Part shown: positions 50,779 through 55,812 of the stretch, one piece after another | Layout: every line of letters starts with the position of its first letter | Position numbering within the stretch: the first letter of the stretch is position 1 | Assembly (NCBI GenBank): GCA_030427985.1 | Contig: JAUIBH010000009.1 | Location: 1 to 64,000, forward strand | Source: Bacteroidia bacterium | GTDB taxonomy: Bacteria > Bacteroidota > Bacteroidia > Flavobacteriales > Flavobacteriaceae | DNA: 64,000 bases | Direction: 5' to 3' | Position numbers and translations under genes: made by a program | Notes under the pieces: model-generated | Seen by the model: the letters and a program-made list of their open reading frames with translations, nothing else | The model's database searches: none | Told to the model about the DNA's origin: nothing

Positions 50779-50814
50779 AAACCCATCTTTCTTTTCCAGA
50801 AATTCATCAATTCA

Positions 50815-50926
50815 CAGGGCATATCTATCCATTTGGTCTTGATGTTATCCATAAAAAATCCGACCTTCACGTATCGGTCGATATAATTCATTTAAAAACG
50901 AATCATATCTTAAGACGTTGTAGGCA
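50815..50926 (+). promoter_or_regulatory. Cassette leader, copy 1 (before the PIN-membrane gene)
   Basis: Repeated leader: GGGCATA word, then TAAAAAATCCGACCTTCACG, the intact CACGTATCGGT (50868-50878), CGATATAATTC, AAACGAATCATATCTTAAG and the end core ACGTTGTAGGCA (50915-50926). Related copies precede the genes at 53180, 57878 and 59268. CACGTATCGGT is the exact inverse of ACCGATACGTG at 51898-51908 beyond the gene. Confidence 0.7.
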
Positions 50927-50935
50927 ATTTTAGAG

Positions 50936-51790
50936 ATGAACTATATTTTAGACACAAACATCATTATTCGATATCCAGAATTACTGGGAAAATCATTTGA
51001 TGGAGTAAAGTTTTATATATCAGAAAGAGTATTAGAAGAACTAAACATTGCCAATGCTCAAGCTTTGCGTAACGTTATTGAAAATCGTGACAACTCAAAT
51101 TTTATTCTTCAAGGAAAAGAAGAGATTTCCAGAATGGGAATTCAAACAAGACCAGGTCAAACTTTAAGAATTCCAGATTTTCAAATATTGAACTATGCTA
51201 AATACATAACTGAATTAAAAGGTAATTCTACATATCTAGTAACGGACGACAGAACGATGCGAATTAACGCGAATGAAAATGGAGTTAATTCCATTTCGTT
51301 AAAAGAGCTGAAAGAAAGACTGCCTGAAGAATCTGAAGAATCAAATACTGCAAAAAAGAAAGTTGACGAAATAAAATCATCGAATAATAAAAGGTTAATA
51401 CTTGGTTTTATTTCAGGTGTAGTTGTTACATTAATTGGCTTTTTTGCGTATTCACAAATCGAACTGATTGTAGAAACTATAAATATTTGGGGAACAATTT
51501 TATTGATATTCATTTCTGGAATTGCGTTATTTATCTTTAGAGAAAAACAAAGACTAGCTTATGGAATAGCAGAACTATTAGCTGGTTTATTAGCAGTAAT
51601 CTTATTATTCCCATCCGACTTTGAGTATTCAACAATTGATTTCAATCTAAATTTTGGATTAAAAATCTTCGCTTCCTTGTATATAATGGTTCGAGGTCAA
51701 GACAATATTATCAAATCAATATCAGGAACTAAACTTGGCGGAATGATTGAAAATAAATTGGGTAGAAAAACTGCCTACAACAATGTATAA
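50936..51790 (+). CDS. PIN-domain protein with C-terminal membrane domain (cassette gene)
   Basis: A 284-residue protein. Residues 1-130 form a PIN ribonuclease-like domain: MNYILDTNIIIRYPEL (catalytic Asp6), acidic RVLEELNIANA and STYLVTDDRTMRINA. A charged linker (EESEESNTAKKKVDE) leads to about four transmembrane helices (~152-175, 183-202, 208-228 and ~238-255). No antitoxin is next to it. It is the sole gene of a cassette: the core GTTGTAGGCA lies 9 bases before the ATG, and its stop falls inside the downstream hairpin. Membrane-bound nuclease is inferred; a TA toxin is less likely without a partner. Confidence 0.8.
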   Translation: MNYILDTNIIIRYPELLGKSFDGVKFYISERVLEELNIANAQALRNVIENRDNSNFILQGKEEISRMGIQTRPGQTLRIPDFQILNYAKYITELKGNSTYLVTDDRTMRINANENGVNSISLKELKERLPEESEESNTAKKKVDEIKSSNNKRLILGFISGVVVTLIGFFAYSQIELIVETINIWGTILLIFISGIALFIFREKQRLAYGIAELLAGLLAVILLFPSDFEYSTIDFNLNFGLKIFASLYIMVRGQDNIIKSISGTKLGGMIENKLGRKTAYNNV

Positions 51791-51908
51791 CCGCAATTAC
51801 GGTAGATGGTTAGTCAAATGAAACTTCCTACGAAAATTACTAACTTGTCAATCTGATAAAAACAAAACCGAAAAAACCGCAACTGCGGTTATACGGTACC
51901 GATACGTG
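51772..51908 (+). repeat. attC-like 3' site of the PIN cassette
   Basis: Starts with TGCCTACAAC (51772-51781), the exact inverse of GTTGTAGGCA at 50917-50926 before the gene. Then AAT, then a 19-nt arm (51785-51803) pairing with 51876-51894 at 17 of 19 positions (outer 11, GTATAACCGCA / TGCGGTTATAC, perfect). It ends GGT-ACCGATACGTG. Both mismatches are A-C on this strand, i.e. T-G wobbles on the other strand. Structure resembles an integron attC site with an asymmetric internal loop (3 versus 11 nt). Confidence 0.65.
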
Positions 51909-52130
51909 CCATTTCAAAACCCCTTCTTTTTTTAATCTTTCAGTTCCTCACAAAAAATCACCTAAGCTCTTGCCCAAAATTGTATCTTGAGCCCTAAACG
52001 CTTTAGTGGTTTCTTTATGCAACAACGAATTGTTACCTCCCTTCTAGCTTTTGCCTTGGTTTGTCTTTACGGAAATGCCCAAGATCAATATCCCAAAAAT
52101 GAAAACCTAGTTGAGCAAAACAATATGCTT
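51898..52130 (+). repeat. Duplicated 5' region of the M1 peptidase gene, copy 1
   Basis: About 230 bases matching 54107-54338 at roughly 88-90%: it begins at ACCGATACGTGCCATTTC, covers the upstream region of the M1 aminopeptidase gene and the first ~35 codons, then homology ends. The intact copy lies downstream of the DUF4304 cassette. Confidence 0.85.
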
Positions 52131-52322: not shown

Positions 52323-52378
52323 AGCTAAAAATTGAAACAGCATTATGTCAAACCCTTATGCTAACAAACCTTCAAGGG

Positions 52379-52984
52379 ATGGGATTGGAATCATATCTAT
52401 TTTACGTAAAATTTGATGAAGAGGTTTCAGAACTGGAACTCGACCAACTTCTCATTTCCATTGGACTCAATCCAGTGAAAAAAGTTGGCAAAAAATTATC
52501 TGATTTTAGAAGCTACTATTACGAATTAATTACAGAAAAAGGAATCACAGAGGCGCATTGTCTTTTTTCACCAGACAACAAAATGGGGGAAAGTTTTTAT
52601 CTGAGGTTTTCAATATGTAGTCCGGTAGAGGTTATTGATCAGACCTTTATGTTGTTGGACAATTTGAACAGCAAGCAGTCAATCAGGGTTAAAGACACGG
52701 AAATTTACAATCATTATTGTAGACGTGAACGGCAAGAAGGAAAGGTTGATGCCAGTTTTAAAGGGTTGACAAAATCAGAAAATCAAATCTTACACGATAA
52801 AAGCTATATCTCGATTGACCCAAATGAATTCAAAAAAAACAAATTGGGAATAATGAAAAGAAATGTGCTCCTACAAGATGATGGTAATAAAGCAATTGTT
52901 CGTGGCGACTCAGAGACATTTCTTTATTTAGAAAAAAAGAGTCTAATTCAAAAGTTTATGGGATGGATTACCAAAGAGTTATAA
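52379..52984 (+). CDS. Hypothetical accessory protein
   Basis: A 201-residue soluble protein of unknown family (MGLESYLFYVKFDEEV start; DFRSYYYELITEKG, ESFYLRFSICSPVEVIDQTF, RGDSETFLYLEKKSLIQKF). Mixed alpha/beta. ATG 52379 is preferred; ATG 52358 would add seven residues. It lies between the truncated and intact M1 peptidase copies, so it arrived with the insertion. A role as an immunity-type protein is possible from size and setting but is not supported by any motif. Confidence 0.7.
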   Translation: MGLESYLFYVKFDEEVSELELDQLLISIGLNPVKKVGKKLSDFRSYYYELITEKGITEAHCLFSPDNKMGESFYLRFSICSPVEVIDQTFMLLDNLNSKQSIRVKDTEIYNHYCRRERQEGKVDASFKGLTKSENQILHDKSYISIDPNEFKKNKLGIMKRNVLLQDDGNKAIVRGDSETFLYLEKKSLIQKFMGWITKEL

Positions 52985-53160
52985 AAGCTGTTATATTGAT
53001 TTGAGCTGGATTTTGAGCTTAAAAAATCCGACCTTCACGCTTGTCTGCCGACAGGCAGGTACCTGTGCTGAACTTGTTTCAGTATCGGTTGATATAATTC
53101 ACTTTGTACTGAGCGAAGTCGAAGTATTAAAACGAATCATATCTTTAAACGTTGTACACC
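52985..53160 (+). promoter_or_regulatory. Cassette leader, copy 2 (before the DUF4304 gene)
   Basis: Same order as copy 1: TAAAAAATCCGACCTTCACG, TATCGGTTGATATAATTC, AAACGAATCATATCTTTAA and the core ACGTTGTACACC. The CACGTATCGGT word is split between CACG (53036-53039) and TATCGGT (53083-53089) by 43 bases of palindromic sequence. A second short insert holds CTGAGCGAAGTCGAAG. TATCTTTA resembles a -7 promoter box. Confidence 0.7.
53040..53082. repeat. Palindromic repeat inserted into the cassette leader
   Basis: TGTCTGCCGACAGGCAGGTACCTGTGC-type palindrome followed by CTGAACTTGTTTCAG, exactly between the two halves of CACGTATCGGT. Related units: 57802-57831 and 59190-59212 at the same place of the other leaders. 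Confidence 0.7.
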
Positions 53161-53179
53161 ATAAAAGACAGACCTGCAA

Positions 53180-53908
53180 ATGACGACACAGGAGTTTAGA
53201 AAGCAAATTGGAAAATATCTCGGAACTAAGATTCGTGAATTCGGATTTAAAGGCTCTGGATTCAATTATATAATGGACTCTGAAAGTTTTGTTTTTACAA
53301 TTGGTTTGCAAGCAAATAGATATGGTGGAAGTTTTTGTGTTGAGTTAGGAGTTCACCCGAAAGAAATAACAAACAACGGATTTGAGGATTTAGATTTTAA
53401 TAAGCTTAAGTACTATAATTGCGAATTTAGGACAAGATTAGCGAAAGAAGGTAAAGGTGATAAGTGGTGGAATTATACTGATTCAGAATCAAAAAACTTT
53501 GAAATCATAGATGATGTAATTCTTTATATTTCAAAATATGCTTTACCAATAATAAATGGATTCAAAAATGATACTGTATTATTGGAAAAGGTTAAAATAT
53601 CCGACATAAAGAATCGATTTATACCTATACCAGACTTTAAAGGTGGATTAACACCTATGACAACTGATATCAGATTGGCTTGGGCTTTAGCAGTGATTGT
53701 TGAAAAATCTAATCCTAAAAAATCATTGGAATTTGCTAAATATGCATTGAAGCATGACAAATCTCCAAGTACATTTTTTGGTACAAAGGATTTGAAAAGG
53801 ATAATTGAATCTTATCAGGACAGTTTCGAGAAAGATTTGCTGATAAAAGAAATGGACAATGATAAACCAAGTTTTTGGACAAAGATTACGGATAGATTTA
53901 AGAAATAG
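53180..53908 (+). CDS. DUF4304 domain protein (cassette gene)
   Basis: A 242-residue cytoplasmic protein. Residues ~1-130 fit DUF4304: FRKQIGKYLGTKIREFGFKG, FVFTIGLQANRYGGSFCVEL, FRTRLAKEG. A C-terminal helical part (RLAWALAVIVEKSNPKKSLE) is TPR-like. Function of DUF4304 is unknown. Only gene of its cassette: core GTTGTACACC precedes the ATG by 19 bases and its exact inverse follows the stop by 9 bases. Confidence 0.8.
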   Translation: MTTQEFRKQIGKYLGTKIREFGFKGSGFNYIMDSESFVFTIGLQANRYGGSFCVELGVHPKEITNNGFEDLDFNKLKYYNCEFRTRLAKEGKGDKWWNYTDSESKNFEIIDDVILYISKYALPIINGFKNDTVLLEKVKISDIKNRFIPIPDFKGGLTPMTTDIRLAWALAVIVEKSNPKKSLEFAKYALKHDKSPSTFFGTKDLKRIIESYQDSFEKDLLIKEMDNDKPSFWTKITDRFKK

Positions 53909-53917
53909 TTTAATTAC

Positions 53918-54117
53918 GGTGTACAACAATGTATAAAAAACATAAGTGGATCAGTGGTTTACGAAACTTTGGCGCATTTAATCAGCTCCGCCAAATCTGC
54001 GATTTGACGGGTTGTTTTAAAACTTTAAGTTTGTGTCAAAACGCAAATTTGGCTCAGTGCAACTTGACAGGTAAGAGCTTCGAAATCACTTACGTTTCTT
54101 ATACTAACCGATACGTG
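53918..54117 (+). repeat. attC-like 3' site of the DUF4304 cassette
   Basis: GGTGTACAAC (53918-53927) is the exact inverse of GTTGTACACC at 53151-53160. It is followed by AAT, an 18-nt arm (53931-53948) pairing with 54087-54104 at 16 of 18 positions, then TA-ACCGATACGTG (54107-54117). Same order and same 3 versus 10-nt internal loop as the PIN cassette site, but with different arm sequence. Both mismatches are A-C here, so T-G wobbles on the opposite strand. The loop (~138 nt) holds no gene; the 71-codon frame crossing it is not credible. Confidence 0.65.
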
Positions 54118-54225
54118 CCATTTCAAAATCCCTTCTCTTTTTAATCTTTCAGTTCCTCACAAAAAATCACCAAAGCTCTTACCCAAAATTGTATCTTGAG
54201 CCCTAAACGCTTTAGTGGTTTATTT

Positions 54226-55812
54226 ATGCAACAACGAATTGTAACCTTCCTTCTGGCCTTTATCTTGGTTTGTCTTTACACAAATGCCCAAGATCAATAT
54301 CCCAAAAACGAAAATGTAGACGTGCAACACTATGTGTTTGGCCTTTCCTTAACGGATGCCTCCAACGAAATTCAGGGTGAAACCCAAGTGACCGTCTCCT
54401 TCAAAGAAAAAGCCGTACCGTTTGCATTGGATTTGGTTGCCAAATCAGGAGGTTTTGGCATGGAAGTCACCGAGGTTATCGAGGACAGCCTCCAAGCAGA
54501 CTATACCTATACCGAAAACAAAATCAATATCGTTCCAAAGACAGAGGCCAAAACACAAACGTTCGTGGTAAAGTATCATGGTATTCCCGAAAGAGGTCTG
54601 GTCATCGATACCACCAAATTTGGAAAACGTTCCTTTTTTGGAGACAACTGGCCCAATTTGGCGCGGCATTGGCTTGCCTCGGTAGACCACCCATATGATA
54701 AGGCGAGCGTGGAATTTCAAATTACGGCTCCAGACCACTACGATGTGGTTGCGACTGGTGAAAAGATAGAAGAGAGTAACCTTGAAAACGGCTACAAACT
54801 CACCATTTACCACGAACCGGCTCCTGTTGCTACCAAGGTCATGACCATCGGTGTCACCGAATTTGCAAGTCGCTTGGTAGATGAAGTACAGGACATTCCC
54901 GTTACCGCTTGGGTATATCCACAAAACAGATTAGAGGGGTTTCATGATTATACTGTGGCTGGAAAAGTATTGGAATATTTCATCAATACCATTGGCCCGT
55001 ACTCTTATGCTAAACTGGCCAATATGCAGGCCAAAACCCAATGGGGCGGACTGGAAAATGCCGGGACCATCGCCTATTTTGAAAATTCAGTCACTGGAAA
55101 TAATGAGGTTGAACCTTTGATTGCCCATGAAATCGCCCACCAGTGGTTTGGTAATTCCGCCACGGAGAAAAGCTGGAACCACGTGTGGCTGAGTGAGGGC
55201 TTTGCTACCTATTTCTGTATCCTGTACTTGGAAAACGTGTACGGCGATGACCGCAGAAAAGAAGAATTGGCCATAGATCGAAGGGAAATCATTTCATATT
55301 ACAAAACCAACCCTTCCCCCATTGTGGATTTGACCATTACCGACCCCATGCGGGTGCTCAGCACTAATACCTACCAAAAAGGAGGCTGGGTGTTGAACAT
55401 GCTCCGCCATAAATTGGGCGATGACGTATTTTGGAAAGGCATTCGAAAATATTATGTCACTTATCGGAACAGTAACGCGCTAACTGATGATTTTCGGCTG
55501 GTAATGGAAGAAGTCTCAGGTAAAAACTTGGAGGGCTTTTTTCAGCAGTGGTTGTTCGTAAAAGGGCATCCGGAACTCAAATGGAATTGGGAATATAAAA
55601 AAGGGAAGGTTATGTTGAATTTGGAGCAAATGCAATCGCATCATGTGTTTCAATTTCCGCTGGAAATTGGTCTGGTCAAAGACGGAAAAACCGCTATTGA
55701 AACCATTCAAATGAAAGAGCGTTCCGGTAGCTTTGAACTCAATTCAAAAACACGCCCAGATCGCGTGATTTTAGACCCCAACCAATGGATTTTGTTTGAG
55801 GACATGAACTAG
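54226..55812 (+). CDS. M1-family aminopeptidase, exported
   Basis: A 528-residue zinc aminopeptidase with signal peptide (VTFLLAFILVCLYTNAQ). Substrate loop WGGLENAGTIAY (GxMEN equivalent) and zinc site HEIAHQWFGN with His301, Glu302, His305 and Glu324 in WLSEGFAT. A short beta-rich C-terminal part; shorter than the ~850 aa PepN because the large C-terminal domain is missing, as in many Bacteroidetes M1 proteins. ATG 54226 is chosen over TTG 54196. Its 5' region is duplicated at 51898-52130. Confidence 0.92.
   Translation: MQQRIVTFLLAFILVCLYTNAQDQYPKNENVDVQHYVFGLSLTDASNEIQGETQVTVSFKEKAVPFALDLVAKSGGFGMEVTEVIEDSLQADYTYTENKINIVPKTEAKTQTFVVKYHGIPERGLVIDTTKFGKRSFFGDNWPNLARHWLASVDHPYDKASVEFQITAPDHYDVVATGEKIEESNLENGYKLTIYHEPAPVATKVMTIGVTEFASRLVDEVQDIPVTAWVYPQNRLEGFHDYTVAGKVLEYFINTIGPYSYAKLANMQAKTQWGGLENAGTIAYFENSVTGNNEVEPLIAHEIAHQWFGNSATEKSWNHVWLSEGFATYFCILYLENVYGDDRRKEELAIDRREIISYYKTNPSPIVDLTITDPMRVLSTNTYQKGGWVLNMLRHKLGDDVFWKGIRKYYVTYRNSNALTDDFRLVMEEVSGKNLEGFFQQWLFVKGHPELKWNWEYKKGKVMLNLEQMQSHHVFQFPLEIGLVKDGKTAIETIQMKERSGSFELNSKTRPDRVILDPNQWILFEDMN

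What the first reader, a model, noticed from the sequence alone, without database searches (positions are those of the whole stretch)
50868..51908. PIN-membrane gene is bounded by gene-specific inverted cores, as in a recombination cassette
GTTGTAGGCA (50917-50926) before the ATG is matched exactly in inverse by TGCCTACAAC (51772-51781) at the gene end. A long hairpin follows, ending in ACCGATACGTG (51898-51908), whose exact inverse CACGTATCGGT lies at 50868-50878. If the unit circularised at ACG|T, the two cores would join as the outer stem of one imperfect hairpin: the logic of an integron cassette with its own attC. The core is near but not equal to GTTRRRY/RYYYAAC, and no intI gene is in the window.
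Basis: partly seen in the sequence, partly recalled or inferred. Interest (0 to 1): 0.85.

Follow-up and report, generated by a model that had tools for sequence, protein, structure and literature searches.

The report
Scattered single-cassette docking sites
A gene in a marine bacterium sits as an exchangeable cassette in one of many scattered landing sites, which suggests that this bacterial family swaps single genes in and out of fixed chromosomal spots by an integron-like recombination system.

Summary
The inverted cores are real and mark recombination boundaries. The PIN-membrane gene is an integron-type cassette (50918-51901): its start core GTTGTAGGCA pairs with its end core TGCCTACAAC, which an attC-like hairpin follows. 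The outer repeat CACGTATCGGT/ACCGATACGTG is not part of the cassette: it is the split arm of a separate 'docking element' (50810-50917) with a hairpin and a promoter-like stretch. A second filled docking site (DUF4304 cassette) lies 2.2 kb downstream. In the genus, 60 of 71 genomes have docking elements, up to 19 each. Of 106 examined, 44 hold exactly one closed cassette, 7 are empty and 55 are not closed by my strict rule; swapped cores close 0-1 of 106. Orthologous filled and empty sites agree at the junction. Four of 45 docked cassettes have proteins 83-91% identical in array stretches of other genera. The array recombinases lack an insert typical of integron integrases, and 17 of 164 core sites fit GTTRRRY. 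The own draft genome shows no such recombinase, and docking numbers do not depend on having one, so the acting enzyme is inferred.

The parts
50810..50917 (+). docking element 1 (target site), left part up to the cut
   Evidence: R1 match 50810-50916, 97.3 bits; cut after G 50917
50839..50869 (+). promoter-like stretch of docking element 1: TTG (50839-50841), 20 nt, GACCTTCA (50862-50869; a degenerate form of the -7 box TAnnTTnn)
   Evidence: sequence; T[TG]G-N20-box in 13 of 14 loci of other genera; not tested for activity
50868..50878 (+). docking arm R'' CACGTATCGGT
   Evidence: exact inverse at 51898-51908
50880..50909 (+). docking hairpin stem GATATAATTC ... GAATCATATC
   Evidence: model R1 structure; sequence
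50918..51901 (+). cassette 1 (984 nt), from TT after the cut to the G before ATACGTG
50917..50926 (+). cassette start core GTTGTAGGCA (its first G comes from the docking site)
50936..51790 (+). PIN-domain protein gene (284 aa), hydrophobic C-terminal half
   Evidence: PF13638 E 1e-13; 56 relatives at E<=1e-5
51772..51901 (+). attC-like site: R'' TGCCTACAAC (51772-51781), stem 51785-51803/51876-51894
51901..51908 (+). right arm of docking element 1, GATACGTG (first G is the last cassette base by the inferred cut)
51898..52130 (+). 233-nt near copy (90%) of the M1 peptidase upstream/start region at 54107-54339
52994..53151 (+). docking element 2, interrupted by two extra stretches
   Evidence: repeats D2, D4, D5
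53152..54110 (+). cassette 2 (959 nt)
53180..53908 (+). DUF4304 protein gene (242 aa)
   Evidence: PF14137 E 6.6e-21
53918..54110 (+). attC-like site of cassette 2, R'' core GGTGTACAAC at 53918
54110..54117 (+). right arm of docking element 2, GATACGTG

Best explanation
The region is a filled docking site of an integron-like cassette system. Shown from sequence: a cassette (PIN gene plus attC-like hairpin, with a gene-specific core at both ends) sits between G and AT inside the right arm of a dispersed hairpin target that carries a promoter-like stretch. The same kind of target is empty or holds other single cassettes in sister species, and the same kind of cassette fills arrays headed by IntI/XerA-type tyrosine recombinases in related genera. 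Inferred: such a recombinase, once resident or supplied in trans, joins the folded cassette attC to the folded docking hairpin. Insertion separates the two arms of the dock, so a filled site can no longer fold and takes one cassette only. The docking promoter then transcribes the cargo.
For: Own-core closure 44 of 106 against 0-1 with swapped cores. Seven empty elements. Filled minus cassette equals the orthologous empty site, best pair L186/L189, flanks collinear on both sides. Eight loci share one site by left flank: two empty, six with six different cores. The docking arm base T or G agrees with the exit base in 43 of 44 (39 T-A, 4 G-C, 1 G-A). Array grammar: 91 of 177 consecutive core pairs exact against 3 of 177 for the preceding site, repeated as 93 of 150 against 3 of 150. 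Downstream of 20 recombinase genes 178 attC-like sites lie on the same strand, 12 on the opposite one, 34 in reversed sequence. Circular attC folds better as bottom strand in 39 of 44. Array counterparts of four docked cassettes, in two of which DNA similarity starts at or within three bases of the cut.
Against: No experiment. Own draft genome (88.9% complete) has only a Xer-like best match, 180.8 bits. Docking numbers do not differ between 34 genomes with and 37 without the recombinase (means 4.7 and 3.7, p=0.78). 55 of 106 elements were not closed by my rule (5 open, 33 with TT start only, 17 other), and the 100 sources were chosen because they held matches. No docking copy was found beside the recombinase in 12 genus loci. 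In the four array-dock pairs the DNA similarity stops before or within the attC hairpin, so whole-cassette transfer with its attC is not shown. Neither window cassette had an array counterpart. The promoter match is partial: the full motif in 36 of 106 genus elements, and the window's own -7 box is degenerate.
Confidence: 0.85

Rival explanations
1. Off-target insertion: an integrase put cassettes into incidental genomic attG-type sites, and the target has no dedicated role.
For: Cassette insertion into genomic attG sites is described for classical integrons (passages; the main paper was not read). The target core here is GAT; the reported GWT consensus is recalled.
Against: The target is a repeated, conserved element of about 105 positions in 60 of 71 genus genomes and 53 of 219 family genomes, the own one included, reused at orthologous loci with different cargo.
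Confidence: 0.06
2. Docking element and cargo move together as one small transposon; the element is its left end.
For: The element occurs at many loci, and in 7 of 30 genomes shown argH and M1 adjoin without any element.
Against: Empty elements with both arms intact; different cores in orthologous elements; similarity to array cassettes starts at the cut, not at the element's edge, in two pairs.
Confidence: 0.05
3. The cassette-dock grammar is right, but the acting enzyme is a host Xer protein or another recombinase, not the array type.
For: No array-type recombinase in the own draft; docking numbers independent of it; archaeal XerA structures score above IntI4.
Against: Arrays with the same core grammar are headed by the array-type gene; absence from drafts can be loss or supply in trans.
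Confidence: 0.2
4. Single-strand (HUH, IS200/IS605-like) transposition of hairpin-bounded units.
For: Hairpin anatomy and a strand bias of folding.
Against: Paired gene-specific cores and arrays headed by tyrosine recombinases. No HUH gene was searched for.
Confidence: 0.03

Closest known systems
Sedentary chromosomal integron (superintegron) with attC cassettes
   Same: Cassette of one gene plus hairpin site, cores that pair only within the same cassette, exchange after G, same-strand arrays beside a tyrosine recombinase, bottom strand folds better.
   Different: The recombinase lacks the IntI insert; the core is mostly not GTTRRRY (17 of 164 fit); cassettes also sit singly at scattered docking elements.
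attG insertion of integron cassettes into genomes
   Same: Cassettes at genomic positions away from the array; target core of the G-W-T kind (consensus recalled).
   Different: attG sites are described as divergent from classical sites (passage); here the target is one conserved hairpin family reused across species.
Integron-like subgroup of tyrosine recombinases (Smyshlyaev 2021, PMC8138268, passages)
   Different: It calls the insertion essential for integron function; here genes without it head cassette arrays.
CALIN (attC clusters without integrase; passages of PMC9024848)
   Same: attC-bearing cassettes without a resident integrase.
   Different: Not clusters: one closed cassette per site, in a defined target element.

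Membership tests
Canonical integron | intI gene beside the cassette | tested here: not met
   Own draft genome: best match 180.8 bits, Xer-like, on another contig; the draft is 88.9% complete
Canonical integron | IntI-specific insert in the recombinase of the related arrays | tested here: not met
   Gap at about positions 180-240 of TIGR02249, no match over cut-off in 12 of 12 genomes; 14 of 14 control genomes also match below cut-off; IntI4 structure aligns in two pieces
Canonical integron | core GTTRRRY/RYYYAAC | tested here: not met
   17 of 164 array sites fit; window core GTTGTAG does not
Canonical integron | attC anatomy R''-L''-L'-R' with cores that pair within the cassette | tested here: met
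Canonical integron | gene oriented toward the attC | tested here: met
   longest ATG frame in cassette orientation in 41 of 44
Canonical integron | attI recombination and integrase activity on the folded bottom strand | not testable with these tools
   only folding energy: bottom strand more stable in 39 of 44
attG insertion site | insertion at a G-W-T core | tested here: met
   cut at G|AT; consensus recalled, paper not held
attG insertion site | sites divergent from classical att sites | tested here: not met
   one conserved hairpin family, 60 of 71 genus genomes
HUH/IS200-IS605 transposition | HUH transposase nearby | not tested
   no search made

The most novel reading that the evidence does not exclude
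A decentralised integron: a family of promoter-bearing, single-occupancy hairpin sites scattered over flavobacterial chromosomes receives cassettes one by one, drawn from integron-like arrays whose recombinases lack the IntI insert. The genome thereby expresses many acquired genes in parallel instead of only those near one array promoter, and occupancy itself inactivates a site.
Probability: 0.6. Interest if true: 0.93.

Novelty: new variant of a known kind. Interest (0 to 1): 0.87.

Why it matters
Integrons are usually pictured as one array beside one integrase. A 2022 survey reported only integrases without cassettes for Bacteroidetes earlier and then one complete integron, in Salinibacter ruber (passages of PMC9024848); a 2021 review lists Bacteroidota among phyla with integrons (passage of PMC8618304). 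Here one family shows long arrays and, besides them, scattered one-gene docks with a promoter-like stretch. This would explain how accessory genes of many kinds (one defence reverse transcriptase) are exchanged at fixed core-genome loci. It also makes directly testable whether cassette recombination needs the IntI-specific insert.

Tried and rejected
Rfam gave no match at gathering score near the site. The sigma-70 scan tool was not used, because Bacteroidetes promoters differ. A tree of ten recombinases with IntI1 and one Xer row did not resolve their place (long branches), so no sister relation to IntI is claimed; NCBIfam scores XerA_Arch above integrase_gron for the first row. A docking copy beside the recombinase was sought in 12 genus loci and not found. 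A recombinase of the array kind was sought in the own genome and not found. At order level only the own genome of 196 matched at E<=1e-5; many of the genomes listed came from one other genus. Ten paper searches listed nothing that by title or abstract start describes these docking sites or such arrays; the library is incomplete, and the 2024 attG paper was not read.

Rows dropped: A1 holds 10 of the 12 recombinase loci examined (one with an internal stop and one more divergent left out). A2 holds 23 of 24 docking sequences. A3 holds 38 of the 44 closed-cassette reading frames (six short ones left out) plus the DUF4304 protein. Elements without usual length were left out of the core count (164 of 196 used).

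Full report
Observation. The window lies in an unnamed draft genome of 3,631,564 bases in 188 contigs, 88.9% complete.

A second unit next door. About 2.2 kb downstream a DUF4304 gene is framed in the same way: GTTGTACACC before it, GGTGTACAACAATGTATAA after it, and the same exit ACCGATACGTGCCAT. The flanks of both units are near duplicates. The exit 15-mer occurs exactly three times in the own genome, each time at the end of such a unit: two in the window, one on contig 147. The contig-147 unit lies among other genes and has the same left flank. A probable fourth unit is on contig 23; its cassette end was not matched by my rule.

Arrays in the family. The motif YACAACAATGTATAA is in 62 of 149 family genomes; the backwards control is seen in two. 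It clusters in same-strand runs. In five fetched regions I found 196 attC-like sites on the array strand, 28 in reversed sequence and 20 on the other strand. The six variable bases at a cassette's start are the exact complement of those at the next end site in 91 of 177 pairs, against 3 of 177 for the preceding site and 84 of 3540 random pairings. Of 164 sites of usual length 17 fit GTTRRRY.

The recombinase. In G068, G034, G113 and G025 a tyrosine recombinase lies about 1-1.5 kb or less upstream of the first clear array site and reads in the array direction; for G101 a later stretch shows the same. The best match in each of these genomes to the integron integrase model has a gap at about positions 180-240, where the IntI4 structure has extra residues. 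None of 12 genomes passes the model's cut-off; the 14 control genomes match below it too. In plasmids most rows listed are IntI1, at about 32% identity, although a Chryseobacterium 'site-specific integrase' is closer at 38%. Archaeal XerA-type structures score above IntI4 (166 and 152 bits against 133), so 'IntI/XerA-type' is the fair name. From 20 recombinase genes read downstream for up to 20 kb (four stretches shorter), I found 178 attC-like sites on the same strand, 12 opposite and 34 reversed; 19 of 20 loci have at least two, and the one without is 1,289 bases long. Exact core pairs: 93 of 150, against 3 of 150 for the preceding site and 168 of 3000 at random. The protein identical to that of G113 is named 'site-specific tyrosine recombinase/integron integrase' of Urechidicola croceus.

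The docking element. The left flank of the window unit is a conserved element of 105 model positions (alignment A2; model R1): a promoter-like stretch, the arm CAC[GT]TATC, a hairpin GATATAATTC/GAATCATATC and the cut after ACG. R1 matches 60 of 71 genus genomes at E<=1e-6, up to 19 per genome, 297 matches in all (summed). In the wider family 53 of 219 genomes match at E<=1e-3, the own one included. Of 14 loci from other genera 13 have T[TG]G exactly 20 nt before a box [TG]AnCTTCG, and 11 of 14 boxes begin TA. The published -7 consensus is TANNTTTG (passages of PMC6847099). In the 106 genus elements the full motif T[TG]G-N18-22-TAnnTTnn is in 36, TAHHTT in 52 and NAHHTTCAC in 94, so the promoter is a hypothesis.

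State of the sites. I classified 106 elements found in 100 chosen sources. 44 are closed single cassettes: exact 9-nt core pair, L''/L' stem, and exit at G followed by the complement of the docking arm with at most one mismatch. 5 have a cassette end but no exit, 7 are empty, 33 start with TT only (10 of them with an exact exit arm further on) and 17 are other (7 with such an exit). No closed chain of two cassettes was seen. With the core of another element 0-1 of 106 close (20 rounds). The variable docking base agrees with the exit base in 43 of 44; one mismatch was allowed in the rule, so this is not forced, but relatedness is not controlled.

Filled and empty pairs. Taking the 982-nt cassette out of the Flagellimonas pelagia locus (L186) gives the Allomuricauda sediminis empty locus (L189)...CATATCTAATAACG|ATAAGTGCAAT... 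against ...CATATCTAATTACG|ATAAGTGCAAT..., flanks collinear on both sides; three further comparisons with empty L204 and L283 agree at the junction, with more diverged flanks. One site is shared by eight loci by left flank (L177, L204, L283, L285, L303, L308, L319, L329): two are empty, six carry six different cores. The argH-M1 site of the window is shared, directly or through another member, with L169, L173, L175, L282, L294 and L328, with seven different cores in all. In 7 of 30 genomes shown, argH and M1 adjoin without a docking element.

Exchange between arrays and docks. Of 45 docked cassettes tested by their longest frame (80 residues or more), four have proteins 83-91% identical over nearly full length in array stretches of other genera: L185-L364, L285-L054, L331-L372, L333-L358; the other matches are 24-37% identical, and neither window cassette has one. 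In two of the four the DNA similarity starts at the G of G|TT (L185, 86%) or three bases before the cut (L333, 92%, CCG|TTGTGCAT in both); in the other two it starts inside the cassette. In all four it ends before or within the attC hairpin, so gene and core are shared but the hairpin is not: either the hairpin evolves fast or it is exchanged.

Cargo. The longest ATG frame reads in cassette orientation in 41 of 44; median cassette length is 1036.5 nt. 39 proteins hit 65 Pfam families; in the 25 shown none is matched by more than two members. One is a DRT2-type reverse transcriptase. The window cargo is a PIN-domain protein with a hydrophobic C-terminal half, most likely a membrane-tethered nuclease (inference from the domain; PADLOC gives only a weak CARF-PIN match).

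Mechanism. Shown: boundaries, single occupancy in the closed class, different cargo at orthologous sites, array relatives of some cassettes, folding bias to the bottom strand (39 of 44). Inferred: recombination of folded attC with the folded docking hairpin by a tyrosine recombinase; loss of docking activity because insertion separates the two arms; transcription of the cargo from the docking element. Against a need for a resident recombinase: none in the own draft, docking numbers independent of it (34 genomes with, mean 4.7; 37 without, mean 3.7; p=0.78), and no docking copy beside it in 12 genus loci.

Verdict. An integron-type cassette in a dedicated, dispersed docking site. It works like an integron but fails two tested defining features of canonical integrons (IntI insert, GTTRRRY core). 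New variant of a known kind.

Noticed in passing
window 51898-52130 and 54107-54339: The region upstream of and into the M1 peptidase gene is present twice (90% identical); the first copy breaks off, so the locus looks like a merger of two alleles.
   Followed up: partly
window 52358-52984; L218: A 208-aa gene without Pfam match between the two docked units follows argH directly in G217.
   Followed up: no
window 53040-53128; L152, L164, L175: A palindromic repeat pair interrupts the arm and loop of docking element 2 and of several other docking elements.
   Followed up: no
L334 2239-3140 (G000 contig 23): Own docked unit whose docking arm (CTCGTAT) and apparent exit (ATAAGTG) do not fully match, so arms may decay or be mixed.
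   Followed up: partly
L059 (G025): The array recombinase gene carries a stop codon inside the matched stretch although its array is long.
   Followed up: no
A1 columns 1-100: Nine of the ten aligned array recombinases have an N-terminal extension of roughly 80-100 residues for which Pfam gives no domain in the one scanned.
   Followed up: no
G000 contig 128:289; L133: One ordinary attC-like site followed by another cassette's core lies near a contig start; it may be the edge of an unassembled array.
   Followed up: partly
L004/L132 (G000 contig 147): A third lone cassette in the same kind of dock; its gene appears to use a TTG start.
   Followed up: partly
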